From a virus, in the IMG/VR virus record IMGVR_UViG_3300034073_001700, positions 1 through 64,000 of that record: a stretch of 64,000 nucleotides of DNA. One strand, 5' to 3'. The translations under genes were made by a program, and so were the position numbers. This document shows positions 68-63,142 of this stretch, one piece after another (positions within the stretch are counted from its first letter, which is position 1; each line of letters opens with the position of its first letter). Below the pieces are notes generated by a model. It had not been told where the DNA came from. It did no database searches and saw nothing but the letters and a program-made list of their open reading frames with translations.

Positions 68-1402
68 TTAATTAAATAAGTCGGCTGTTTTGAGGAAACG
101 TCCGCCCCATAGGGATTTTTCAACCATCTCTGGTTGCTCCTGTACGATCTCGCCTAGATCGCCAGACTTTCGGAAAGCGGTATCTGCTTCTACTGCGTCA
201 ACTCGCTTACCAAACTTACTAACTTGTTCTACTGTTGCAGCGATATCTTTGGCGACTGCATCTAGTGAACTCTTTACTGCTTCTGTATCAACCTTTGAAG
301 ACTTAAGCATTTCTACTTCTGTCTGCAAAGACTTGACGGTTTCAGTTAAATCGCTAAAGGCTGATGTAATTGTATTCTTTAGTTCTGCTATTGATTCAAC
401 AATAACATCATCTGATTTCTTTGCCTTCATCTCTTCTTCATCTTCCATATCATCTTCTGAAGAATCTTCTTCTTTTGATGATGAGGATGATGCTGCAGCC
501 TTTTCTGTTTCAACAACTTCAGTTGTTTCTACAACAACTTCATCTGCCTTTTCAGTTTCAACTACTGGAGTTTCAGCAACTGCCTCTGGAGCGATCTCTT
601 CTGACTTTTCAATTTCGGTTACTTCTTCAGCAACCTTTTTTGTTTTTGCCATAGGATTTTCCTCCTTTGAAGTCTTAGCACCAATGCCTTTAGCACTATC
701 TACTAAGAATTTGACTATATCCATTTTTTCGTTGTCTTCTTTTTCAACGAAACCTATATTTTTCATTTCATTACCAGTAATTGGACTGTTTACTGTTTCT
801 TGATCTGAAACCATTACTATTCCAGATTCTTCATCATAAAAAACATTTTCAAGTGCAACATCTGCACCTTTAACAACTTCTACTCCATCAACTTTTTCAA
901 CTGACATAATATTAGCAAACTGATTAGCAGGAGAATCTACAAGACTCAACTCTACTAAATCATAATCCTTAATAATTCTAATTGTGGAATCTGATTTCTC
1001 ATCATAACCATCATCCCATTTATTCATACGTCCACCAATTGAAAATCCTGTTAGTGTACCGTCCAAAACTTTTTCCCATGTATCTTGTGCACCCTTTGAA
1101 ACATATGCTGATACAAAAACTCCAGAATAAAACTTTTTTGTTTCTGGATCAAAATATCTATCTTCTTTAAAGTTAACCATTTTACCAACAGCAAGTGGCT
1201 GATGCATTTCACGAATGTTTCCACGAAACTTTGAAAACGCTTTCATTGATGCCTCTGCTGTAACAATATCACCTTGCTTATCAAGGTTATCGAGTGAGGC
1301 AAAGCCTGAGACGATACGTCTCTCCTTATCAACCTTCGCAAATGGAAGGGAAAGCCTTACTGATTCGCCATCGGTATCCCAATGGGCTTTAGATATAGTC
1401 AT
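68..1402 (-). CDS. Prohead protease with C-terminal scaffold-like region
   Basis: Capsid maturation protease of the HK97/U35-like serine type. The N-terminal ~190 residues carry the family pattern: a GFAS strand, a conserved His in a MHQP motif (likely catalytic) and a GFSIGG segment with the candidate catalytic Ser. Residues ~230-455 are low-complexity, rich in Glu, Lys, Val and Ser and partly coiled coil, as expected for a fused scaffold. The start chosen is MTISKAHWD; an upstream in-frame start would add 11 unlikely residues, and a TATAAT box 10 nt before this ATG suggests a leaderless or very short-leader mRNA. It lies between portal and the putative capsid gene. The exact catalytic dyad is inferred. 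Confidence 0.85.
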   Translation of the reverse strand: MTISKAHWDTDGESVRLSLPFAKVDKERRIVSGFASLDNLDKQGDIVTAEASMKAFSKFRGNIREMHQPLAVGKMVNFKEDRYFDPETKKFYSGVFVSAYVSKGAQDTWEKVLDGTLTGFSIGGRMNKWDDGYDEKSDSTIRIIKDYDLVELSLVDSPANQFANIMSVEKVDGVEVVKGADVALENVFYDEESGIVMVSDQETVNSPITGNEMKNIGFVEKEDNEKMDIVKFLVDSAKGIGAKTSKEENPMAKTKKVAEEVTEIEKSEEIAPEAVAETPVVETEKADEVVVETTEVVETEKAAASSSSSKEEDSSEDDMEDEEEMKAKKSDDVIVESIAELKNTITSAFSDLTETVKSLQTEVEMLKSSKVDTEAVKSSLDAVAKDIAATVEQVSKFGKRVDAVEADTAFRKSGDLGEIVQEQPEMVEKSLWGGRFLKTADLFN

Positions 1403-1468
1403 ACTAGAATATATTATAGAGCCTTTTTTACACAAATGTTAATAAACTGTGAATAAACCTGTGGAAAA

Positions 1469-3049
1469 CTATTCTGAAGATCTACCTTCACCCTTTGGGT
1501 TTCTACCGTTTAAAGTAGCAGGACCGTCAGACTGATTGTTAGTTCTCTCTCCATCCCTCGCACGTTCTGGATCTGGCTTAGGCTGGAAAGGCTCGTCTCC
1601 TCCTTCCCTTTGTGGAAGACCCAATACAGATCTTGCCTCGTTAGGAAGCATAACTTGAGTCTTTACATATCGTTCCAAAATCTGAGACTGTGCTATTTCG
1701 TCTGTCAAGGTTAGTTCTTTAAACTTTAAAACCAACACATCTGTTTTTTCTTTAATAATTTTATTTAATGTCTTTTCTAATTCTTTTTGTGCTGGTCTAG
1801 CAACTTGTTCTTTAAATGTACGGTCTTGTGCAAGTGCTGCTGCTATTGAGCCAGAGTCTCCTCCGCCAATTTTAGATAGCGGTACTTGGTGTGCTATTAA
1901 AATGTCATCACGGTTCTGATTACGATATCTCTCAAATGAGCCTTCCTGTACGCCATTCTCAATAGGCTCCATCTTAAACTCAACCTTATTTGTATCGCTA
2001 TCTCCAGGAAGGGGTATGTATAGCGTTCTGTGTGACTGTCCTTTAAGACTTGTCTGTAAAAATCTAAACATCTTATCTTCAGCGTCTGCCGAAAGTCTGG
2101 CGCCCTTTAGTGTCACAACATAACGAGGGACAGCCTTATTGCTAAAGTAGTCGATGTTATATTGTGACGCTAACTGGTCTCCATGGAGCGAGTTTATTGC
2201 CGACATTATATCTGGTACACCATAAAAAGTATTTAAAGGCGAATACTGTTTAAAGTGTATTATTTCATTAGGCCTTGGATCAGAGGTTACTGGATTAGTA
2301 TTCTTTGCTCCAAAGTTTCTGAAATAAACAACCTTTTGTCCAATGATTTGAACAAATCCATCACGTAGTCTACGAACACGCATAGTAGTTGCTGGAATAT
2401 GTCCTATATATCCAATTTCACCACGGGTGGTTCTGCCTACTTCTAAATATCCGTTACCAACGGCCTGCACGTCTGTATAAACTTTCATCATTGTTGTAGT
2501 AAATGAATCATCATCATTTAAAGATTCTATCCATTCGTGCATCTCAATCTTTGCACGTTCAATTCTATTTCTTGCTCTTTCAACTTGTCCAGAATCTTTA
2601 TTAGATTCCAAACGAAGCATTGTGCTTGGAGAAACCTCAAAGTCATATCCAAGGCCAACGATGTTTTCTACTTTTGCATCAATTGCAGCATGGTTAGCAA
2701 ACGATGTATCATAATAGTTAGCAAGTTCATAAACATTCCATGGTGGTGTTATTACATCAAATAATCCGTAGCCATTTCTATATACCGTGCCAGGATTTAT
2801 TTCTTTTGACTTAGCACCATCAATTCCAGACTGCTCTGCTCTTGCGCTATCAAGATATCCCTGGGTGGGATTCATTCTGTCTGCTTTTTCTACAAGCCTT
2901 GTTGTTCTTCTTCTAAAATTATTGTCCAAACCGTTGTATGACTTGAGTTCTCCCCAAGACTTATTAAACGGATCCTCTGCCTTAAATTGATCTAGTGGAT
3001 TAACTAAATTATCAATACTAGCCTTAATAACGTATTCTTTTTCTTCCAT
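1469..3049 (-). CDS. Portal protein
   Basis: Forms the dodecameric ring at one capsid vertex through which DNA is packaged and ejected. The 526 residues fit the phage portal family: an N-terminal arm, a core with the pattern ITPPWNVYELANYYD and NEIIHFKQYSP, a helical stem region with IPLPGD, and a C-terminal region ending in a disordered Pro/Gly/Asp/Arg-rich tail. The DDILIAHQVPLSKIGG stretch is typical of portals. The start ATG overlaps the end of the upstream small gene and the protease gene follows after 66 bp. Confidence 0.9.
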   Translation of the reverse strand: MEEKEYVIKASIDNLVNPLDQFKAEDPFNKSWGELKSYNGLDNNFRRRTTRLVEKADRMNPTQGYLDSARAEQSGIDGAKSKEINPGTVYRNGYGLFDVITPPWNVYELANYYDTSFANHAAIDAKVENIVGLGYDFEVSPSTMLRLESNKDSGQVERARNRIERAKIEMHEWIESLNDDDSFTTTMMKVYTDVQAVGNGYLEVGRTTRGEIGYIGHIPATTMRVRRLRDGFVQIIGQKVVYFRNFGAKNTNPVTSDPRPNEIIHFKQYSPLNTFYGVPDIMSAINSLHGDQLASQYNIDYFSNKAVPRYVVTLKGARLSADAEDKMFRFLQTSLKGQSHRTLYIPLPGDSDTNKVEFKMEPIENGVQEGSFERYRNQNRDDILIAHQVPLSKIGGGDSGSIAAALAQDRTFKEQVARPAQKELEKTLNKIIKEKTDVLVLKFKELTLTDEIAQSQILERYVKTQVMLPNEARSVLGLPQREGGDEPFQPKPDPERARDGERTNNQSDGPATLNGRNPKGEGRSSE

Positions 3050-3417
3050 TAGTCATCTGCTCCATACTTTTTAATAGTTTGCTGTGCAGCGTGTACAGCA
3101 CCAAGATCATTAAGGTTTGGTATTAGCCCTTCAGACATTCTTTGTTTCTGCTCTGCATATTCCTCGTCAGAAATTCTGCTTAGTCCAGCAAAAAATACCG
3201 CTTCTCCGTCTGGCTCGCCGTAGTGTGCTGCAGCCTGACTTAATTCTGCTAGTTTTGATAGGTCCCCTCGCATTGATGGTATGTTTAATATATTACCTTG
3301 TCCATCTGTAAACCATTTACCATTAGATTTTTTCCATACATAAATACCCCAGTCATAATTTTTATCTATAACCTTCATACGTGAATTGCCAATTTTGCCA
3401 GGTTTTTTGTTTTTCAT
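3049..3417 (-). CDS. Small conserved phage protein beside portal
   Basis: About 122 residues, basic N-terminus, no recognised domain. It has a GIYVWKKSNGKWFTDGQG segment and an acidic C-terminal half with IPSMRGDLSKLAELSQAAAH. The start is taken as the ATG at 3417 because a TATACT box ends 7 nt upstream, giving a leaderless mRNA; a GTG two codons earlier is also open. It overlaps the portal start by one base, so the two are probably translationally coupled. A head or connector role is possible from position only. Confidence 0.7.
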   Translation of the reverse strand: MKNKKPGKIGNSRMKVIDKNYDWGIYVWKKSNGKWFTDGQGNILNIPSMRGDLSKLAELSQAAAHYGEPDGEAVFFAGLSRISDEEYAEQKQRMSEGLIPNLNDLGAVHAAQQTIKKYGADD

Positions 3418-3435
3418 ATCCACAAGTATACCATA

Positions 3436-6400
3436 TTATAAGGCTGAAGAGGTTGTCTGTTGCCACAAAACGTTCTGATATATATTATATTCACAACTAC
3501 CAATACTAAATATCCTATCTGACTCAACAGTTATCTTATTTGTTCCAGAGTAACTCTTATAAATGTCTTCTGGGTCAACCCCATAATAACTAATTGATGA
3601 CTGAACCAGTACCCCGTTCCACAAGAAAAACTCTGGTAACCAATAGTCCCAGTCCAGGGTTAATGGCCCAGATCTTTTAACCTGGAACCATGGCCTGGTA
3701 GAAACTCTCTGAACTTCTTGCAGATTTGTAGACTGATAATAAGAAATATTATTAAATAGCATTGGACCGTTTAGTTTGATTGACCCCATGACTCCAGAAA
3801 TATCCAAAAGGTTGGAAAATGATATTCCTAAAAAGGCCCACTGTTTAATAGTGATAGTTGGATCTTTTACGATATTTCCATTAAGGTAAAATGCTATACC
3901 ATTTTCAATCTTTCCAGTTAATGCATTGACTCCATAAATTCTACCTCGCTGACCAGTTTGATCATTTGCGACAATATAAAATCTTATGTAAGAATTTTTT
4001 GCCTCAATTTCAAATATCTGAGTTGGAGCATATGGAAAATAATCTTCGTCAAATCTCAAGGCAATTTGCATTGCCATAATTTTGTCAAAGTTGGTAAGTT
4101 GGTCTTCGTTAATTGGAATAAACAAACCTCTGTTAATAAGAGGATCTTGTTTGCCCCTTAATTGAATTCCGCTATTTCTTGTCATATATAAATACGGAGA
4201 ACTTTGTTTATATATGCTATATGGATTTTTACCGTTGTAATTGTAATATAATCCAGATTTTTTATAAGGATACATTTTGCTATAAGGACTAGTTCCAATA
4301 GGGTTGCTTGCCTCATTAAATGCCTGAGAACAATATTCTAATTTTTTAACTTTAACTTTATTTCTTAATATATTTTTTGCTTTAAATTCTAAATGAGTTA
4401 CGATTGCTAAGTCGTTAAAGTCAACATTGGTTGGTGGATATATAATCATATTATTTATAGTTTCATATTTTGTTGACAACCAATCATGACCTGGTTCAAT
4501 TGTTCCCTCTTTTGCTGGTGGCTCTGTTTTTGTAAAAAATCCTGCACTTGCATTTGCCCCAGCCTCTATGTATTGAAATGTAATGTAAGATCTAACATAT
4601 GCATTAGTGGTGTCATATTTAAAGGTTCTTGTTGTATTATACTGTAAGTCTTCGTAGTCCCTATATCCAGTAAATAAGAAATTATCCAAAGAGTCATAAT
4701 TACGCTTTCTTGGATAATTATATTTATTAAATAACTGTGCGTATGTCCAACTTTCTCCCTGTGTTTCTATTTCATAAAACTTGGATGGTGCTGGATAATC
4801 AATATTAAACTGTAAGAAATCTAAATCATAATAGGTATCTCCATCATAATCTTCTGTAAATTGTGCATAGTATGTAAGTGGTTGATAGTCTTCCCAATAT
4901 CCAGCACAGTCTATGTCTAAAGAATACTCGCCAAGATATCTAGATGCAACCAATGTGTACGATGCCGTATGATTTAGTACCTTATCGAATAGCATTAATC
5001 CAGGAGTTCCACCATCAATTAAATAATCCCACAGTTCTCGATCATATAGTCCAGCATCAACTACTAGGGCACTAGTATAATCATCAATACTAAAATAATC
5101 TGCAGGTAAGCCGTTAGTTCCAAATGCTGGAGCGATTAAAGAAGAATTTCTATCATTACATAACCCAACACTATATATATTGCCGTCAAACCAAGCACTA
5201 AAGAATTCATCATTGCCAATATATACTTTACATTGTGATATGTTTCCTAATATTGAGGCTACCTCGCCACCAAACCAATTTACTGCATTTGATATGTTAA
5301 ATCCAGCATAAAATTTTTCTCCTTTATTTATTTCAATGCTTTGTCGGTAAATTTGTTTTAATGGTTGATCTCCTAACTTAACAACGTAAGTCACCTTTGA
5401 ACTATCCTCATACAGGTAAATGTGAAAATAATTATTGTTTGGGTCTATAATTTTAAATAAAGTCATTGGCTGTTCTACGCCATTGATATATCTTGCATCA
5501 CCAGTTCTTTTAAACACACCATAAATACTTTTTACTTGTTGCTGTAAAAAGTTTACATTATCAAAATATACCTGTGCTGTATAACTATTATTAGGTCTTA
5601 CTCTAAAATATTCATCATCTAATTCTAGTGGAAGAGATGAGTTTGCATTTAACCACTCAGGGTAGTAGTCTTCTTTTGGTATACCTCCATAATTAATTAA
5701 AAAGTTAGGTAAGGCATAGTTAGGTGTTGATAATATGTTATTTTCTATTGACAGGTTATCATTTATACCCTGGCCCCACTTGCCAATATCTGGGTAGACA
5801 TAGTTATTAGAATAATCTGCAAAGGCATAATCTATAAGTAATGATTTTCCGCTATACGCAGTATTAATATTATCTGGAGACTCTACGCCCTGCCCATAAA
5901 CAAATCTACGCTTTGCTACAATATTTGAAACCTTATATGGATAAATTCCAACACAGTCTAACTCTAATGGGGTAACATCATCGTAAGCCCAAAAGCCTAA
6001 CCATTCTTTATCTGACTGAAAATCAATTTCTTCAGATTTTTGATAAATGGATAAAACTTCTTCGCCATTAATATATAACTTTGATGAGTCTTCTAAATAC
6101 AGAATATGAATAAGCATTGGCCTTACCCACTCACCAATGTAATGAGAGGCAGATTTGTTTCCTATTTTTAAAACTAAGAATGGTCCATCAACATACAGGC
6201 CATTATCATCTTCTATATTTCCAAATATTTTTTTAGGCTCTGTAGCATCTGAATTTATTCTTATCCACATTTCAACTGTATAAATTTTATACTTACCAGA
6301 ATTATTTAAAAATCCTAAAGACGGTAAAACTAAGGAAGGCTTGTTGTCGTTTGGAAATACAATGGTGCAGTTAGATGTTCCATAAACCATGGGGGCACCT

Positions 6401-7137
6401 GAATTTTTTGCTAACAGAGCATTGTTGTCAACCAAATAGTACCCGTCGTTTTCTTGAAGTCCGTATGATCTTGCTGGGTAACCGTATGTTGTTTGTTCAA
6501 ATATACCCTCAGGTATTTGTATTGGCTGAATGCCAAGGGAAACAGAGGCAAACTCCTCTGACCACTGACCAAAAGTTATTCCATTTACTAGTATTGAGTT
6601 TTCCTCTGGATCAGAATATCCAGTTAAAAAGTTTGCCTTTAGTACAAGCCTCATCTGACCTTCGTCATTTGGAATCTTAAAAGTTTCAGATAAGAACATC
6701 CACTTTTCCATAATTGTAGTATTAAAGATTCTAGTTTTTTGTATGTAGTCTCCGAGAGCCACGTCATAATATTCATATCCAAGTTCATAACTTGTTATGT
6801 ATGGACTATTTGAATAAACATAAACGCCTACTGAAAATGTTCCTAAGTTTAAACTTAATCCAGAAAAATCTAAAATGTCTGGGCTTACACAAGAAAAAGA
6901 TCCAGAGTCGCCAGATACTACGTTTCCCTTTATTTTAGTTACGCTAGAATTAATAAAAGGTTCATTTAAAATATTTGTAAAGTTTTCTACTTGACATCCT
7001 GCTGTAGCCCAAGTATAAACATTTCTATTTTCATTAGATATCAGAGAAACATAGTCTGCAGAGTCATCTAAGGACCAAAGACCTATTGGATGTTCTGCAA
7101 AGGCTTTATCTGCGTATAGATTAGAAGCAATAGACAT
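3436..7137 (-). CDS. Large tail or fibre protein with lectin-like (LamG-type) domains
   Basis: 1233 residues. Several regions look like concanavalin A/LamG jelly-roll modules: repeated patterns of the type YTVEMWIRINSD, DGPFLVLKIGN, KLYINGEEV and LEFKAKNILRN, which usually bind glycans. The protein is rich in Tyr, Asn and Ser and poor in Cys, as phage adhesins often are. No signal peptide or membrane segment is seen. It lies between the ribonucleotide reductase gene and the portal cluster; a TAAAAT box sits 9 nt before the ATG. Likely a minor tail or baseplate adhesin; the number of jelly-roll units is a guess without structure prediction. Confidence 0.7.
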   Translation of the reverse strand: MSIASNLYADKAFAEHPIGLWSLDDSADYVSLISNENRNVYTWATAGCQVENFTNILNEPFINSSVTKIKGNVVSGDSGSFSCVSPDILDFSGLSLNLGTFSVGVYVYSNSPYITSYELGYEYYDVALGDYIQKTRIFNTTIMEKWMFLSETFKIPNDEGQMRLVLKANFLTGYSDPEENSILVNGITFGQWSEEFASVSLGIQPIQIPEGIFEQTTYGYPARSYGLQENDGYYLVDNNALLAKNSGAPMVYGTSNCTIVFPNDNKPSLVLPSLGFLNNSGKYKIYTVEMWIRINSDATEPKKIFGNIEDDNGLYVDGPFLVLKIGNKSASHYIGEWVRPMLIHILYLEDSSKLYINGEEVLSIYQKSEEIDFQSDKEWLGFWAYDDVTPLELDCVGIYPYKVSNIVAKRRFVYGQGVESPDNINTAYSGKSLLIDYAFADYSNNYVYPDIGKWGQGINDNLSIENNILSTPNYALPNFLINYGGIPKEDYYPEWLNANSSLPLELDDEYFRVRPNNSYTAQVYFDNVNFLQQQVKSIYGVFKRTGDARYINGVEQPMTLFKIIDPNNNYFHIYLYEDSSKVTYVVKLGDQPLKQIYRQSIEINKGEKFYAGFNISNAVNWFGGEVASILGNISQCKVYIGNDEFFSAWFDGNIYSVGLCNDRNSSLIAPAFGTNGLPADYFSIDDYTSALVVDAGLYDRELWDYLIDGGTPGLMLFDKVLNHTASYTLVASRYLGEYSLDIDCAGYWEDYQPLTYYAQFTEDYDGDTYYDLDFLQFNIDYPAPSKFYEIETQGESWTYAQLFNKYNYPRKRNYDSLDNFLFTGYRDYEDLQYNTTRTFKYDTTNAYVRSYITFQYIEAGANASAGFFTKTEPPAKEGTIEPGHDWLSTKYETINNMIIYPPTNVDFNDLAIVTHLEFKAKNILRNKVKVKKLEYCSQAFNEASNPIGTSPYSKMYPYKKSGLYYNYNGKNPYSIYKQSSPYLYMTRNSGIQLRGKQDPLINRGLFIPINEDQLTNFDKIMAMQIALRFDEDYFPYAPTQIFEIEAKNSYIRFYIVANDQTGQRGRIYGVNALTGKIENGIAFYLNGNIVKDPTITIKQWAFLGISFSNLLDISGVMGSIKLNGPMLFNNISYYQSTNLQEVQRVSTRPWFQVKRSGPLTLDWDYWLPEFFLWNGVLVQSSISYYGVDPEDIYKSYSGTNKITVESDRIFSIGSCEYNIYQNVLWQQTTSSAL

Positions 7138-7157
7138 TATGGGTCTATTTTATCATA

Positions 7158-9191
7158 CTACGCAGATATTTTTATTTCACAGGCATCTGTAGTACAGTAC
7201 ATTTCTCCCTGTGCCTCTAAATTTTCAGCGCCATCATAAATAGCAGACCAGTCAATCTTTTTAATCTGTCCAATGTAACTGTCATATTCTTCCTTGGTTA
7301 TTTGGGTATACGGTTGTTGTGGATATACTGTATTTCCCATCGGCAAGAATGAGACAGCCTTTAATTGTCCCTCGTACATGTGAAGCGCAGGCGCAACATG
7401 CTTTGCTTCAGTTTCTTTGTCAAATGAAAGCGTTACAGACACGCCGTTATCTGACCAATATTTCTGAGCAGTAGCAGCAAGCGCAATTTTCTCAAATAAG
7501 GTAACATCTTTTTCAGATCTTGGATGTCCAGAATGTACTGGGAAATATACGACAGTTGTATTCGCAGATACAAGGTCATCTTCCATCTTATATCCAGCAG
7601 CCTTGAACAAGTGAATCATTGGGTCAGTATTCCCAAATCTAATTGCTCTCAAGAAATAATCTCCACCTGGTGCCCAGTGAACTCCTGGCGTTGCGCCAGA
7701 AAGAATTGATACAGACCCTGATGGCTTAACAGTTGTGACTCTAATGGACTCACGAACACATAACCATTCTGAATATGAATGATCATATTTACGGATAGTC
7801 TTGTATCCTTCGTCCATCCATTCACGCACAACAGGCAAGCCAAATTTGTCTGAGAATGAAGCAATACCTGTAAGCGATGTTCCAATGCGACGATTACGCT
7901 GCATAATTCCATTTGTCTGCTGCCAGTGTGTTGGAATCAGCGTTACCGTCTTGCCATACAAATATGCAAACTTTAATGTACGCAAGAAATCTTCTTTAGA
8001 CTCATGACGATTTAAGTGCACTTCAACCAAGGTACACAATTCGTATGACTCCAATGGTTGCTCTGCACATGGATTAAAGCCCATCACACGATAATCCTTG
8101 CCATCCTTTGGATCAGCCAAACGACCATAATTTCTAGCCACATCAAGCCAAATGAATCCTGGCTCTCCGTTGTTTACTATTAGGTCTACGTAGTCTTCGT
8201 ACTTTGTACCTACCGTCGCAGCAATGGAGTTATTAGACATCCATGCCCAACCTGGTTTTTCTGGATCAAATGAATTACGCTCTGGAAAAACCTCAGCGTT
8301 CTTCAAATTCATAAAGTCTTGATCTTCTGCCCCACCCAAAGCCAAGGTAGCAGATCGTCTAACATTTCCTGATACCACACAAGTACCAATAAGGTTTACT
8401 AGGTCTACTATTGCTCTTGAGTCTAGGGTTTCTCCAGCCCTACCGCCGATTACAGCCCTGATCTGCTTGTGTAACTGTATAAGTGGTGCAGGACCGCTTG
8501 CGGTGCCTCCAAAACCCTTAATAGGGGCACCCAAAGGCCTAATAAGGTCATAGTTAAACTCTTGTATATACATATTAGGTTTTAAAAATGAATTGATAAT
8601 TAATCTAACAGACTCAACCCATCCTTCACGAGTATCTGGTATTTCATATACCTGTGGTGGTTCTGTTGGGTCATAAATAGGAAGATTTTTCTCCCCGCCC
8701 AAAGTATCGAATCCTACGCCTACACCCATCATTAAGGCATCCATAACCCAACCAAATAACTGTCCTGGATCGTTGCGATCTATGTCCTTTGTAGAAACCA
8801 TTGCACAGTTCTGTAAAGCAGCAGAGTTTTTCTTTTCCATAGTAAGAGAAGTACCGAAAGACCATAGACCTCTTCCTGGTGGTGTCCACTTTAATTCAAA
8901 CAAACGCTGATAGGCCTCTTTAGCAGAAGCCTGTGCTTTATAGTCATTCCATGGGAGTCTGTTTTCTTTAGCATGATTCTTCTGGGCTGAATACATACCC
9001 TCGATTACTCTACGACAAACCTCATGCCATCTTTCTTTAGTTCCATCCTCTTTCATACGGGAGTAGGTACGAATAAAAGTAATCTCTCCTAATGAATTAC
9101 CACCTGCGTCTGTGAAACCAAATGGAGGTTCCTTTGTTTTATACTCATTTATAAACTCTTCAGACAAACGAAAACTAAAAAAATCAGACAT
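7158..9191 (-). CDS. nrdJ: Adenosylcobalamin-dependent ribonucleoside-triphosphate reductase (class II)
   Basis: Reduces NTPs to dNTPs with a B12-derived radical (EC 1.17.4.2). The 677 residues match the monomeric Lactobacillus-type enzyme end to end: N-terminal PWNDYKAQASAKEAYQRL and WTPPGRGLW, the NCAM cysteine, the active-site loop NPCAEQPLESYELC whose two cysteines are 11 apart as in C408/C419 of the model enzyme, and the C-terminal thiol pair C666/C671 (spacing 5) that re-reduces the active site. All key cysteines are present, so it should be active. Start: AGGAGA 6 nt before the ATG, behind a TATACT box near 9225. It sits oddly among structural and oxygenase genes. Confidence 0.95.
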   Translation of the reverse strand: MSDFFSFRLSEEFINEYKTKEPPFGFTDAGGNSLGEITFIRTYSRMKEDGTKERWHEVCRRVIEGMYSAQKNHAKENRLPWNDYKAQASAKEAYQRLFELKWTPPGRGLWSFGTSLTMEKKNSAALQNCAMVSTKDIDRNDPGQLFGWVMDALMMGVGVGFDTLGGEKNLPIYDPTEPPQVYEIPDTREGWVESVRLIINSFLKPNMYIQEFNYDLIRPLGAPIKGFGGTASGPAPLIQLHKQIRAVIGGRAGETLDSRAIVDLVNLIGTCVVSGNVRRSATLALGGAEDQDFMNLKNAEVFPERNSFDPEKPGWAWMSNNSIAATVGTKYEDYVDLIVNNGEPGFIWLDVARNYGRLADPKDGKDYRVMGFNPCAEQPLESYELCTLVEVHLNRHESKEDFLRTLKFAYLYGKTVTLIPTHWQQTNGIMQRNRRIGTSLTGIASFSDKFGLPVVREWMDEGYKTIRKYDHSYSEWLCVRESIRVTTVKPSGSVSILSGATPGVHWAPGGDYFLRAIRFGNTDPMIHLFKAAGYKMEDDLVSANTTVVYFPVHSGHPRSEKDVTLFEKIALAATAQKYWSDNGVSVTLSFDKETEAKHVAPALHMYEGQLKAVSFLPMGNTVYPQQPYTQITKEEYDSYIGQIKKIDWSAIYDGAENLEAQGEMYCTTDACEIKISA

Positions 9192-36896: not shown

Positions 36897-37046
36897 CTAA
36901 TTATTATCCTTGCAGGAGCAGTTTTCACAGCATTGTTCTTGGAACATCTTTAGGGCTAAACCGTCGTTTTCTGGCCTACCCAGATCTTCCCAAAATTTTT
37001 CACGACCCATATTGTCATTTTCTGAAATTTTTTCTGATTCGCTCAT
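36897..37046 (-). CDS. 49-residue Cys-rich microprotein (CCxxCxC, copy 2)
   Basis: MSESEKISENDNMG start, then KMFQEQCCENCSCKDNN at the end. Its ATG overlaps the stop of the SpeD-like gene (ATGA), so it is translationally coupled to it. Metal binding is likely; linkage to polyamine chemistry is only positional. Confidence 0.68.
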   Translation of the reverse strand: MSESEKISENDNMGREKFWEDLGRPENDGLALKMFQEQCCENCSCKDNN

Positions 37047-37435
37047 TTTTGTTCCTTTGATATATAGATATCCTCTACCACAAAGCCATCTTCTCTATCA
37101 TATATAACCCAGTCTATAGACTTAATATCAAACCGTTCATTGAGTGCATTAAGTACCGTGAATTTATCTAGGCTACCGCATGTGTATAGGTCGAATTGTA
37201 GTAATCCTGGATCTACCTCGTCCCAGATGTGAAATGCTATATGGCTTGTCTCAATCATAACAATTGCTGTCAAACCTTTGTTTCCAGGAGCATCTACATA
37301 TGAGGCAAATGGTCCTTTGATTATTTTCATATCTACCCTGCGAACTAGGTCTTTTAAGAACTCTACCGCCTCATCCTCTGATCGGATCGGATTTGATACC
37401 TTGGCGTTTACGAGCATGTGCTTGTGGAATATCAT
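37043..37435 (-). CDS. speD: SpeD-family pyruvoyl decarboxylase
   Basis: 130 residues, the size of a class 1B S-adenosylmethionine decarboxylase proenzyme. The pattern TAIVMIETSHIAFHIWDEV, then LLQFDLYTCGS, keeps the Ser-His pair at the self-cleavage site and the catalytic Cys. In the classical enzyme cleavage is Glu-Ser; here the residues read E-T-S-H, as in some phage homologs that may decarboxylate ornithine or arginine instead of AdoMet. Leaderless: TATAAT 6 nt before the ATG. Confidence 0.8.
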   Translation of the reverse strand: MIFHKHMLVNAKVSNPIRSEDEAVEFLKDLVRRVDMKIIKGPFASYVDAPGNKGLTAIVMIETSHIAFHIWDEVDPGLLQFDLYTCGSLDKFTVLNALNERFDIKSIDWVIYDREDGFVVEDIYISKEQK

Positions 37436-39904: not shown

Positions 39905-39925
39905 TTATCCACAGGGTTATCCACA
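39905..39925 (+). promoter_or_regulatory. Pair of DnaA-box-like sites
   Basis: TTATCCACA at 39905-39913 and 39917-39925, two perfect consensus boxes 12 bp apart on the same strand. A CCTAGG site precedes them and a CRP-type palindrome (39955) follows. Single perfect boxes on the other strand lie at 50079 and 50720. Confidence 0.6.
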
Positions 39926-45233: not shown

Positions 45234-46244
45234 ATGGCTCACGAATTAGAAACGCAAAATGGCGTTGCTTCTTTCGCTTCTTTTAGAGAACCTGCTTGGC
45301 ATGGTCTTGGCACAGTTTTCACAGAAGAAAAAAATACAGCAGAAATGCTTGCTGCTGCTAATCTAAACAATTGGAATGTTAGATTGGTTGATGTTGAAAT
45401 TCCAAATACTCTTACATCAGATAAGAATTATTCTTATGTTGTAAGAACTAACCCTACCGATAAATCTCAGACCGATGTTCTCGGTGTTGTCGGTGAGCGT
45501 TATCATGTTCTACAAAATGAGGATTTATTCTCTTTTGGTGACACTATGCTTGACGGCGGTGGCCGTTGGGAAACTGCTGGCTCCATTCGTGGTGGTCGTG
45601 TAGTATTCGGCTCTCTTGCTCTTGAGCGTGAGACAATTCTTGACCCTAATGGTGTTGCGGATAAGGTAAAGACTTATCTTCTAATCAATACCTCTCATGA
45701 TGGGTCTATCGCAATTCAGGCTTCAATCACGCCCGTTCGTGTTGTATGCGCTAACACTCTCAATCTTGCGTTAGGTCGTAAGGGTAAAGGCCCTAAGCAA
45801 TCTTTCAAGATTAGACACACACAGACCGCTAACGGCAAAGTTCAAATTGCTCGTGAGGCTCTTGGTCTTGCTAATACTTACATGGACGAATTCGATAAAA
45901 TGGCTAAGGCTATGATTGAAAAAGAAATCACAGCACAGCAATTTAACGACATCGTTCTCGCTGCTTATCCTAAGCCTGACAGCGACAAGAAAATCGCTAT
46001 CACAAAATGGACTAACAAGATTGATGTTATCAATGACATCTACACAGGCCAATTTAATGGCATGATTGCTAACACCGCTTGGGGTGCGTTCAATGCGCTA
46101 ACCGAAAGATTGGATTGGCATCGTTCTGCTCGTGGTGGTAATACTGAGGCAATGCTCGCTGCTGCTTCTGGTTTTGACCCATCAATTACAGCAGAAAAAA
46201 ATCGTTTGCTAAAAGTTGTAAAAGATGTTTTAGCCGTAGCGTAA
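45234..46244 (+). CDS. DUF932 phage/plasmid-like protein
   Basis: 336 residues. PAWHGLGTVF, VVGERYHVLQNEDLFSFGD, GSIRGGRVVFGSLAL, INTSHDGSIAIQASITPVRVVCANTLNLAL and WGAFNALTERLDWHR are the DUF932/TIGR03299 pattern, found in many phages and plasmids. Biochemical role is unknown; the family is often near early replication or anti-defence genes. Well expressed unit with its own promoter and ribosome site. Confidence 0.88.
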   Translation: MAHELETQNGVASFASFREPAWHGLGTVFTEEKNTAEMLAAANLNNWNVRLVDVEIPNTLTSDKNYSYVVRTNPTDKSQTDVLGVVGERYHVLQNEDLFSFGDTMLDGGGRWETAGSIRGGRVVFGSLALERETILDPNGVADKVKTYLLINTSHDGSIAIQASITPVRVVCANTLNLALGRKGKGPKQSFKIRHTQTANGKVQIAREALGLANTYMDEFDKMAKAMIEKEITAQQFNDIVLAAYPKPDSDKKIAITKWTNKIDVINDIYTGQFNGMIANTAWGAFNALTERLDWHRSARGGNTEAMLAAASGFDPSITAEKNRLLKVVKDVLAVA

Positions 46245-46574: not shown

Positions 46575-46603
46575 TTGACATTCCCCTACATTTTTGCTAA
46601 AAT
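46575..46603 (+). promoter_or_regulatory. Early promoter, TTGACA-N17-TAAAAT
   Basis: -35 46575-46580, -10 46598-46603. Drives the 46634-48180 operon. Confidence 0.72.
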
Positions 46604-46633
46604 TTAATTACGAACCCAATAGAAAGGCCCACG

Positions 46634-48781: not shown

Positions 48782-49108
48782 AAATCTCAGCCCTAACGGG
48801 CGCCTAGAGGATATTTGTATATAAAACCATCAAACCATTTTTACGAATGTATTACGAACCATTACCAAATTTTTCCTGAAAGTTTATTACGATCCAAACC
48901 ATAATATCCCCAAACCTTCTATCATAATATTTTTGTTTTGTCAAACCATCAAACCATAGTGTATGATTGTATCTCTATGTATTGTACTAGATGTATTACG
49001 ATCTCTTCTTCTATACCCCGCCGTTTTTGCGGGGGCTTTTAAAAAAGATTAAGAACGCCGATTTCTTCCCCCCCTCAGAAGTTATCAAACCAGGGTTATA
49101 ATGTATAT
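48782..49108. repeat. Non-coding repeat field, part 1
   Basis: No gene. AT-rich, with ATTACGANCY at 48851, 48886 and 48995 and many AAACCAT copies (48823 to 48960). It also holds a CCTAG site (48803) and the GC hairpin at 49016. Confidence 0.7.
49016..49040 (+). terminator. GC hairpin terminator
   Basis: CCCCGC (49016-49021) pairs with GCGGGG (49029-49034), then GCTTTT. Ends rightward transcripts before the 49109 gene. Confidence 0.65.
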
Positions 49109-49303
49109 ATGAGTCCAGGACGCTTTAGCCAACTATCAAAAGAAGAATGGAAAGCATTTGATAAGGATATGAAGGTTTTGACGGGTATGTTATATACCGT
49201 TACTACTTGGCCATTGAAGCCCTTTATTCCTGCCCTGCGAAAAAAGGCGGGGACAGATAAAAAACATTACGAACCTCTATATAATCCCCCTATAGATCAA
49301 TAA
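49109..49303 (+). CDS. Small protein inside the repeat field
   Basis: 64 residues: FSQLSKEEWKAFDKDMKVLTG, WPLKPFIPALRKKAG, then HYEPLYNPPIDQ. Leaderless: TATAAT (49097-49102) ends 6 nt before the ATG. Its 3' end carries one ATTACGAACC repeat. Function unknown. Confidence 0.65.
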   Translation: MSPGRFSQLSKEEWKAFDKDMKVLTGMLYTVTTWPLKPFIPALRKKAGTDKKHYEPLYNPPIDQ

Positions 49304-49690
49304 CAAACCATATTTCCTGGTTTTCTGGTTTTTTAAAACATTTTAAAAAGTATTACGAACTTATTGGAATTTTTCCTGGATATTTGGCAATTTTCATCCA
49401 AAAATAGATTACGAGCCTATTGACAAACCATGGTTTTGGATGTATAATGCCCAAACCTTGATACAATGGTTTGACAGATATGGGGGATATGTGGTATAAG
49501 GATACAATGGTTTGGGATATAGGGTTTGATAGATAGATCAATTTGTCCCCGCCCATTACGAGCCGCCCTATAGAAAACGTTCCATCCTCCACTATCCTCC
49601 ACTTCACTCCACTTTACGACTATATAGAAATAATATCAGTAAGATTTTTATATTACCAATAGTTGACAATTACTTATCAAAATGGTATTC
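49304..49690. repeat. Non-coding repeat field, part 2
   Basis: About 390 bp with no gene. ATTACGANCY at 49352, 49408 and 49555 (and 49266 just upstream), AAACCAT/ATGGTTT in both orientations, including a palindromic AAACCATGGTTT near 49425, and GATACAATGGTTTG twice (49460, 49501). CCTCCACT repeats near 49588-49612. This looks like iterons of an origin or a partition site. Confidence 0.7.
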
Positions 49691-49697
49691 TTTTTAT

Positions 49698-50075
49698 ATG
49701 GAAAACATAGACTTTGGATCATTTGATATAACATTTTCTAACATAATGTTCTATTTAGGCGCATTATTATTTTTTTATTTTGCATTTATTTCAAAAGCAA
49801 ATGATTGGTCCACCCTAAAGGGATTTGGAAGATTTTGTGTATCTGCTTGGACCATAGCCTCATTGATTAAATTAATAAGAACTCAGACAACAGTCATAGA
49901 TGTTATAGATTGGACCCTTATTATGTTTATGGCCTCTTACTTAGTAGCAATTATATTTAAGGCTATACATAAAACTGCTGTAGAGAATGCTGAAGAACAG
50001 TTAAAAATATTAGAACAAGAAGAGGCAGATAAAGAACTAATTCGGCAGGCTGCTAAAAAGATTATTCAAGGATAA
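49698..50075 (+). CDS. Small membrane protein, three spans
   Basis: 125 residues. Spans near 14-32 (NIMFYLGALLFFYFAFIS), 47-60 and 72-90 (WTLIMFMASYLVAIIFKAI), then a charged coiled-coil tail. Promoter TTGACA (49662) -N17- TATTCT; the ATG is 6 nt past the -10, so leaderless. Function unknown. Confidence 0.75.
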   Translation: MENIDFGSFDITFSNIMFYLGALLFFYFAFISKANDWSTLKGFGRFCVSAWTIASLIKLIRTQTTVIDVIDWTLIMFMASYLVAIIFKAIHKTAVENAEEQLKILEQEEADKELIRQAAKKIIQG

Positions 50076-50128
50076 ACCTGTGGATAAACATACTTGCCAA
50101 ACCTCTGTATTCATGGTATCCTGAAAGA

Positions 50129-61057: not shown

Positions 61058-63142
61058 ATGTCAGAAGCAAAATGCCCATTCACAGGCAATAGCCTAACAA
61101 ACGAAGGAACATATAATAAGGATTGGTGGCCAAACCAGTTAGATTTGTCTCCTTTAAGAAAAAATTCAGAAAAATCTGATCCTATGGGAGAAGACTTTGA
61201 CTACGCTAAAGAGTTTAATAGTTTAGATCTTGATACTCTTAAGGCTGATATTGAGGAAGTTATGACTACCTCGCAAGATTGGTGGCCTGCCGATTACGGT
61301 AACTACGGCCCACTATTCATTCGTATGGCATGGCACTCTGCAGGTACATACAGAACAACTGATGGTCGTGGTGGCGCAGGAGAAGGCCTACATAGATTTG
61401 CTCCACAAAATTCATGGCCAGATAATGGTAATTTAGATAAGGCTCGAAGACTTCTTTGGCCTATTAAGAAGAAGTATGGAAAGAAGATTTCATGGGCAGA
61501 CCTCATGATTCTTGCTGGTAACGTTGCTTTAGAAAACATGGGCTTTAAGACTTTCGGTTTTGGTGGAGGTCGTGAAGATGTTTGGGAAGCAGATGATACT
61601 TACTGGGGTAGTGAAAAGGAATGGCTTGCAGACAATCGCTATAGCGGAGATCGTGAGTTAGAGAATCCTCTTGCTGCAGTTCAGATGGGTTTGATTTATG
61701 TAAACCCTGAGGGTCCAAATGGTAATCCAGATCCACTTCTATCTGCTCGTGATATTCGTGAGACATTTGCTCGTATGGCAATGAACGATGAAGAGACTGT
61801 AGCACTTATTGCTGGAGGACATGCATTTGGTAAAGCACATGGTGCTGGAGATCCTAAGCATGTTGGTCCAGAACCAGAAGGTGCACCAATTGAAGAACAA
61901 GGTCTTGGATGGAAAAATTCATTTGGAAAGGGTAATGCAGAAGATACTATTACAAGTGGTATCGAAGGTGCATGGACTCCAACTCCAACAAAGTGGGATA
62001 ACACCTACCTTAAACTATTATTTAAGTATGACTGGAAGCAGGTAAAGAGTCCTGCTGGTGCTACACAATGGATTCCCACAGATGAGTCTGCTGCTAATTT
62101 AGTTCCAGACGCACACGTTGAGGGTAAATTCCATGCTCCAGTTATGACAACTGCAGACTTAGCACTTAAGTTTGATCCAGAATATGAAAAGATTTCAAGA
62201 CGATTCCTTGAAGACTTTGACTATTTCTCTGATCAATTTGCTCGTGCCTGGTTTAAGTTGACGCATAGAGATATGGGTCCAATTGCAAGGTATCTTGGTA
62301 AAGAGGTTCCTGTAGAAGAACTAATTTGGCAGGACCCAGTTCCTGTATCAATTACAAAGGATATTGATGTAGAGAGTATTAAGAATAGAATTAAATCTTC
62401 TGATATTCCTATGTATCATTTTGTCTATACGGCATGGGCTTCTGCGTCTACCTTCCGCAAAACAGATAAGCGTGGTGGTGCAAATGGCGCTCGTATACTA
62501 CTTGAGCCACAGCGTAGTTGGGAAGTAAATGATAACTCAATAATTTCTAGCGCTGTTGATTTCCTTAGCACGGTTCAAAAAGAACATATGATTTCTATGG
62601 CAGATTTAATTGTTCTTGCTGGATGTGCAGCAATCGAAAAGGCTTCTGGAGAAAGAGTTAAGGTTCCATTTACTCCTGGTCGTGGAGATGCAACTCAAGA
62701 GCAGACCGATGTTGAGTCTTTCAAAGTTCTTGAACCTATCGCAGATGGCTTTAGAAATTATTTAGGAAAAGGCACTACAGTTCCTTCAGAAATTTTGTTG
62801 GTAGAGAAGGCTAATATGCTAAATCTAACCCCAGTAGAGATGGTTGTTCTTCTTGCTGGAATGAGAACATTAGTGATTGATACACTAAATAATGGCTATC
62901 TGATTAGTCTTTTGTCTGGACAAATTTCTTGGAAGCAAACATCTATTGATAATTTCCAAGGATATGTCAACGGAGAACTAGTTGGTAATGCAACTCGTGT
63001 TGATCTGATTACTGGATCAAACTCAGAACTCCGTGCTATTGCAGAGGTATATGCTTCTGACGATGCAAATGATAAGTTTGTGTCTGACTTTGCTAAAGCA
63101 TGGAATAAGGTAATGATGCTTGATAGGTTTGATGTCAAGTAA
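61058..63142 (+). CDS. katG: Catalase-peroxidase KatG
   Basis: 694 residues, both halves present. Breaks down H2O2 as catalase and peroxidase (EC 1.11.1.21). Active-site R89, W92, H93 ([12 protein letters not shown]), heme ligand H255 ([10 protein letters not shown]), and the W92-Y214-M240 adduct needed for catalase activity are all there. Each lies 15 residues before its counterpart in the tuberculosis enzyme (R104, W107, H108, Y229, M255, H270). The C-terminal copy ([20 protein letters not shown]) lacks heme ligands as usual. AGAAAGAAG before the ATG; 21 bp after gpx. Confidence 0.97.

What the first reader, a model, noticed from the sequence alone, without database searches (positions are those of the whole stretch)
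48851..49564. ATTACGANCY iteron-like array with AAACCAT repeats: candidate origin
Seven copies of the 10-mer ATTACGANCY, all on the plus strand (48851, 48886, 48995, 49266, 49352, 49408, 49555), in 714 bp, with about ten AAACCAT/ATGGTTT copies, in the longest AT-rich, gene-poor stretch. One copy lies at the 3' end of the small 49109 gene. Repeats of one site next to AT-rich DNA are typical of replication or partition sites.
Basis: partly seen in the sequence, partly recalled or inferred. Interest (0 to 1): 0.75.

Follow-up and report, generated by a model that had tools for sequence, protein, structure and literature searches.

The report
Phage origin-like repeats at genome end
A cluster of one-directional repeats in a freshwater phage genome is a real, family-wide conserved control region that sits where related phages' DNA molecules physically end, next to binding sites for the bacterial replication starter DnaA, and is most likely where the phage starts copying its DNA.

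Summary
ATTACGANCY occurs 9 times in the 120,142-bp phage record, all on the + strand: 7 in 48851-49564, one at 46607, one at 117229. The repeat is longer than reported: a bipartite ~27-bp element, ATTACGAWCC plus a C-box at +22 to +25. In 43 non-redundant relatives the 850 bp upstream of a conserved CTCCAC block hold 220 forward and 1 reverse TTACGA. Behind the array lie a conserved sigma70 promoter, CTCCAC repeats, ATCAGTAAGATTT and, in 31 of 43, a tandem pair of DnaA boxes (expected 0.04 boxes); in the window phage this pair is split by a small inserted gene. Cultured Streptomyces relatives (Boydwoodruffvirinae) carry the same array in the last ~700 bp of the genome, at the edge of ~11-kb terminal repeats. 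In several the last repeat starts 28 nt before the physical end; the same spacing predicts an end at 49582|49583 here. In Loccivirinae, copies stay beside DnaA boxes in a ~1.4-kb noncoding region; in Comrade this is ~6 kb from a conserved cut site, so the array follows DnaA boxes rather than ends. Best reading: an iteron-like origin fused to the packaging end (confidence 0.55). Replication function and binding protein are inferred.

The parts
48851..48876 (+). repeat copy 1 (ATTACGAACC ... TTCC)
   Evidence: exact 10-mer; PWM from relatives 20.0 bits
48886..48911 (+). repeat copy 2 (ATTACGATCC ... CCCC)
   Evidence: PWM 32.7, best in genome
48995..49020 (+). repeat copy 3 (ATTACGATCT ... CCCC)
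   Evidence: PWM 22.0
49048..49073 (+). degenerate copy (ATTAAGAACG ...
   Evidence: PWM 16.7
49266..49291 (+). repeat copy 4, inside the 3' end of ORF 49109-49303
   Evidence: PWM 28.1
49352..49377 (+). repeat copy 5
   Evidence: PWM 23.8
49408..49433 (+). repeat copy 6, abuts the -35 of the array promoter
   Evidence: exact 10-mer; PWM 9.8 only
49555..49582 (+). repeat copy 7, terminal type; 28 nt from its start to the predicted genome end
   Evidence: exact 10-mer; PWM 11.6; aligned with relatives and with Streptomyces phage ends
49582..49583 (.). predicted physical genome end / terminal-repeat junction (cut between these bases)
   Evidence: homology with GCAC|CATTACACACTATC of Streptomyces relatives and the same 28-nt spacing; inferred, no read data
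48824..49527 (.). AAACC(AT) elements, mostly AAACC to the left and GGTTT to the right of ~49430
49420..49448 (+). consensus sigma70 promoter TTGACA-N17-TATAAT; spacer holds most of the palindrome AAACCATGGTTT (49425-49436)
   Evidence: sequence; a TTGACA-N15..19-TANNNT promoter lies roughly 100-180 bp before CTCCAC in most relatives
49587..49613 (+). three CTCCAC repeats at 10-bp spacing
49635..49647 (+). ATCAGTAAGATTT, strongly conserved, AT-rich surroundings
49651..50070 (+). approximate extent of an insertion that separates the DnaA boxes from the array; carries ORF 49698-50075 (125 aa) and promoter TTGACA-N17-TATTCT
   Evidence: comparison with L055 and L013
50071..50087 (-). remnant of the tandem DnaA pair (GGATAAACCTGTGGATAA); intact box 50079-50087
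46575..46632 (+). promoter TTGACA-N17-TAAAAT followed by a lone motif copy (46607) over the start site, C-box at about +22
   Evidence: same arrangement in 21 other loci, redundant ones included
49109..49303 (+). small ORF (64 aa) within the array; no family match; similar sequence in close relatives
45234..46244 (+). DUF932 / phrog_1221 gene, positional anchor used to find relatives

Best explanation
The array is the iteron-like part of a phage replication origin built at the junction between terminal repeat and unique region. A phage-coded protein (unidentified) binds the bipartite repeats ATTACGAWCC-N12-CCCC in one orientation. The strong promoter at 49420 transcribes through the CTCCAC / ATCAGTAAGATTT segment, and in most relatives host DnaA binds a tandem box pair beyond it, so that this AT-rich segment opens and the phage helicase and primase load. 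The same protein would regulate the operon promoter at 46575 through its lone operator copy. The last repeat is also the end element of the linear genome, where concatemers are cut. Shown: the motif, its orientation, conservation, promoter, DnaA boxes and position relative to the ends in cultured relatives. Inferred: protein binding, opening, initiation, cutting at 49582|49583 in this phage.
For: 9 copies in 120 kb, all +, 7 clustered. A motif model built without the window finds its best hits in the array. 220 forward against 1 reverse TTACGA in 43 non-redundant loci, and DnaA-box pairs in 31 of 43 against 0.037 boxes expected. Module of array, promoter, CTCCAC repeats, ATCAGTAAGATTT and DnaA pair in register. 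Same array in Boydwoodruffvirinae with DnaA boxes just outside the end. In Loccivirinae 2-3 copies stay within ~350-400 bp of DnaA boxes in a ~1.4-kb noncoding region; in Comrade that is ~6 kb inside the genome, away from a conserved cut site. Annadreamy: 3 of its 4 exact boxes lie in that region. Flank-only motif models transfer between clades (P 0.03 to 4e-4). Operator copy over a promoter start, as expected for a self-regulating initiator.
Against: No replication data and no identified initiator. 12 of 43 loci, the window among them, lack an intact DnaA pair beside the block. A second tandem DnaA pair lies ~5 kb upstream of the DUF932 gene in the window (39905) and about a dozen relatives, so DnaA boxes are not unique to this site. 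The satellite MulchRoom, which lacks key replication genes (PMC10690885), carries one terminal copy but no array and no exact DnaA box. In Comrade bipartite copies are also scattered in gaps between genes. No GC-skew switch. Repeat spacing is irregular, unlike classic plasmid iterons.
Confidence: 0.55

Rival explanations
1. The array is the packaging recognition site (pac/cosB-like): the small terminase binds the repeats and the complex cuts 28 nt after the start of the last copy, making the long terminal repeat.
For: In Boydwoodruffvirinae the array abuts the physical end; in Karimac, StarPlatinum, Mildred21, MulchMansion and MindFlayer the last CTTACGA copy starts exactly 28 nt before it. 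Ends of BE1 phages were set by read-start pile-ups (PMC5764925). Satellite MulchRoom ends CTTACGA...ATACCCCAT|, like its helper's ...ATACCCCAC|. Freshwater relatives keep a sequence like |CATTACCCACTATC at about the same distance.
Against: In Comrade both cut-site junctions are conserved but the array is ~6 kb away beside DnaA boxes. NootNoot, Jay2Jay, EGole and Comrade have end elements without TTACGA although the first three keep the array. MulchRoom has a single copy and its own terminase genes. A lone copy over a promoter has no packaging role.
Confidence: 0.2
2. The array is mainly a transcription-control region: a phage repressor or activator binds the repeats, and another protein binds AAACCATGGTTT, to control early promoters at the genome end.
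For: Conserved sigma70 promoters in the array with a palindrome in the spacer; lone operator copy over the 46575 promoter start; scattered bipartite copies between genes in Comrade.
Against: Does not by itself explain the CTCCAC repeats, the DnaA pair, or one-directional clustering in a single noncoding region; the window genome has almost no copies elsewhere.
Confidence: 0.18
3. Partition (parS-like) or other maintenance site.
For: Repeats in a noncoding region; ParB-like nuclease-domain proteins are annotated in terminal repeats of relatives.
Against: Repeats are directional, not palindromic; no ParA seen among the genes scanned; BE helper phages are presumed virulent (PMC10690885).
Confidence: 0.03

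Closest known systems
Iteron-type origins with DnaA boxes (P1 oriR, RK2 oriV, Vibrio cholerae ori2)
   Same: Several one-directional repeats, DnaA boxes, AT-rich segment, promoter, extra operator copy outside the array
   Different: Irregular spacing, bipartite ~27-bp repeat, no recognised initiator gene, located at a linear genome's terminal-repeat junction
lambda cosB / SPP1 pac packaging sites
   Same: Direct repeats on one side of a cut site; last copy at a fixed 28 nt from the end in several relatives
   Different: Spread over ~700 bp; separable from the cut site in Comrade; linked to DnaA boxes; a copy also overlies a promoter
Terminal regions of Boydwoodruffvirinae (Streptomyces BE phages NootNoot, Jay2Jay, Karimac; PMC5764925)
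   Same: Homologous locus: DUF932 gene, array, end junction, DnaA boxes
   Different: TTTACGA instead of ATTACGA, CCCGG-like box, no CTCCAC repeats seen, DnaA boxes inverted and further apart
Stoperator / operator arrays of actinobacteriophages (from own knowledge)
   Same: Asymmetric repeated sites in noncoding DNA with one orientation
   Different: Clustered at one locus here rather than spread through the genome; no repressor gene found

Membership tests
Iteron/DnaA-type replication origin | several direct repeats of one site in one orientation | tested here: met
Iteron/DnaA-type replication origin | DnaA boxes next to the repeats | tested here: inconclusive
   met in 31 of 43 relatives and in cultured relatives; in the window the pair is split by an insertion and one intact box remains at 50079
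Iteron/DnaA-type replication origin | AT-rich unwinding segment | tested here: inconclusive
   conserved AT-rich ATCAGTAAGATTT segment; opening not testable; region overall 35.6% GC
Iteron/DnaA-type replication origin | cognate initiator protein, usually self-regulated | tested here: inconclusive
   no initiator found among the genes scanned; an operator copy overlies a promoter
Iteron/DnaA-type replication origin | replication starts there | not testable with these tools
   needs infected-cell sequencing
Terminase pac/cos site | fixed position next to the physical genome end | tested here: inconclusive
   met in Boydwoodruffvirinae, not met in Comrade, predicted only for the window phage
Terminase pac/cos site | binding by the small terminase | not testable with these tools
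   no binding data
parS partition site | palindromic sites plus ParA/ParB | tested here: not met
   repeats are asymmetric and one-directional; no ParA among the genes scanned

The most novel reading that the evidence does not exclude
One bipartite element is used three ways by a phage family: as origin repeat beside DnaA boxes, as operator on a promoter, and as the end element at which the linear genome is cut, so that replication start and packaging end are physically coupled; the satellite MulchRoom copies the element at its own genome end to match its helper.
Probability: 0.3. Interest if true: 0.75.

Novelty: new variant of a known kind. Interest (0 to 1): 0.55.

Why it matters
I found no described origin or end-recognition sequence for these phages in the papers searched. 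The comparison gives a 27-bp motif, a conserved module and a base-exact predicted genome end for uncultured freshwater phages, and makes origin against packaging testable in cultured Streptomyces relatives and their satellites.

Tried and rejected
Blastn of the region against phage records: no match; the link came through the DUF932 protein. GC skew: no switch. Reading the repeats as antisense ECF-type promoters (GGGG...TCGTAAT) was considered and not pursued: seven tandem antisense promoters have no gene to serve. The nucleotide consensus of the other terminal-repeat edge is not found in this genome, so the far edge of any terminal repeat here is unknown. Contig ends of relatives do not pile up at the predicted cut (read off). 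The Streptomyces cut-site consensus has its best whole-locus match in the block in 12 of 37 relatives, not in the window itself; this is supportive but the relatives are not independent. Helical phasing of the array copies: none seen by eye.

Full report
Observation. The window belongs to a 120,142-bp virus record with only two further copies, 46607 and 117229. Ten AAACCAT/ATGGTTT copies lie between 48824 and 49513. The stretch is not unusually AT-rich.

The element is longer than seen. Aligning 91 de-duplicated sites (the window's own included) shows a second conserved part: a run of C at +22 to +25 from the A of ATTACGA, preceded by an A/T-rich spacer. A weight matrix built only from relatives puts five of the seven array copies, the lone copy at 46607 and a degenerate copy (49048) above everything else in the genome; copies 49408 and 49555 score lower, within the range of chance matches.

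Conservation. The DUF932 gene (45234-46244) leads to 80 viral loci with up to 92% protein identity. In 43 non-redundant loci the 850 bp before a CTCCAC block hold 220 forward and 1 reverse TTACGA (6.0 and 0.03 per kb), against 0.39 and 0.20 per kb elsewhere. The module reads: array; one or two sigma70-type promoters roughly 100-180 bp before CTCCAC; a last copy of distinct type; two or three CTCCAC repeats 10 bp apart; ATCAGTAAGATTT; then two DnaA boxes TGTGGATAA 11-12 bp apart. The pair is present in 31 of 43 loci. In the window a ~420-bp insertion with a 125-aa ORF separates the array from one intact box at 50079 and a truncated partner.

Relation to genome ends. The phage is a distant relative of Stanwilliamsviridae: its DUF932 protein is ~52% identical to that of NootNoot, where the gene sits 1.4 kb from the left end. 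In NootNoot (terminal repeat 10,787 bp) and Jay2Jay the terminal ~700 bases hold 5-6 copies of TTTACGA, all in one orientation, with DnaA boxes just outside the junction. Karimac, EGole, Mildred21, StarPlatinum, MulchMansion and MindFlayer also carry the array at the end. BE1 ends were set by read-start pile-ups (PMC5764925). In Karimac, StarPlatinum, Mildred21, MulchMansion and MindFlayer the last copy starts 28 nt before the end. Freshwater phages have a last copy followed, usually 27-28 nt later, by a sequence like |CATTACMCACTATC of the Streptomyces junctions; L049 matches 16 of 18 positions, the window 12 of 18. This predicts an end at 49582|49583 in the window.

Separating origin from packaging. 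Comrade (Loccivirinae) keeps both end junctions (GCAC|TATTACACTCTC and TATAT|CATACATC) but has a terminal repeat of only 734 bp. Its array copies lie at 121500-121646 with DnaA boxes at 121979 and 122182, in a 1.46-kb noncoding region about 6 kb from the junction. Annadreamy has a similar noncoding region with two copies and three boxes. The array therefore follows DnaA boxes, not ends. Against this, the satellite MulchRoom, which lacks key replication genes (PMC10690885) and carries its own terminase genes, has a single copy exactly at its physical end and no array, so the terminal copy seems to matter for end formation. The simplest reconciliation is a composite locus: an origin whose last repeat doubles as the end element.

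Regulation. A lone copy lies over the start of the promoter at 46575-46603; the same promoter-plus-copy arrangement is found in 21 other loci, redundant ones included. This suggests the binding protein also regulates transcription. In Comrade, bipartite copies are also found in gaps between genes, which supports a regulatory role there and tempers the origin reading.

Limits. All function is inferred from sequence. The binding protein is unknown. A second tandem DnaA pair lies ~5 kb upstream of DUF932 in the window (39905) and about a dozen relatives, so DnaA boxes alone do not single out this site. The freshwater relatives are not independent samples, and the host (probably a low-GC freshwater actinobacterium) is inference.

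Noticed in passing
window 39905-39925: Tandem DnaA boxes TTATCCACA-GGG-TTATCCACA in a noncoding gap; a similar pair lies ~5 kb upstream of DUF932 in about a dozen relatives. Possible second origin or DnaA-controlled promoter.
   Followed up: partly
window 49651-50070: Inserted small gene (ORF 49698-50075, 125 aa, own promoter, no PHROG match) that splits the conserved array-DnaA module in this phage.
   Followed up: partly
window 61058-63142: 694-aa peroxidase-family protein (PF00141, E 6e-67) in a phage genome, catalase-peroxidase-like; unusual phage cargo.
   Followed up: no
L089 6027-7577 and 2639-4060: Tryptophan halogenase-like and carbamoyltransferase-like phage genes.
   Followed up: no
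L122 1-27 and 13179-13205: Physical end of satellite MulchRoom carries the helper's end element (CTTACGA...ATACCCCAT|) and the other end shares CATGTAT| with the helper.
   Followed up: yes
L096, minus strand, gaps between genes at 374-7240: Comrade has TTTACGA/CTTACGA, some in hairpin loops (e.g. GGAGGGTCCTTTACGAACCCTCC), between genes, oriented against transcription; function unknown.
   Followed up: partly
window 37043-37435: S-adenosylmethionine decarboxylase-like gene on the minus strand inside the plus-strand gene island.
   Followed up: no
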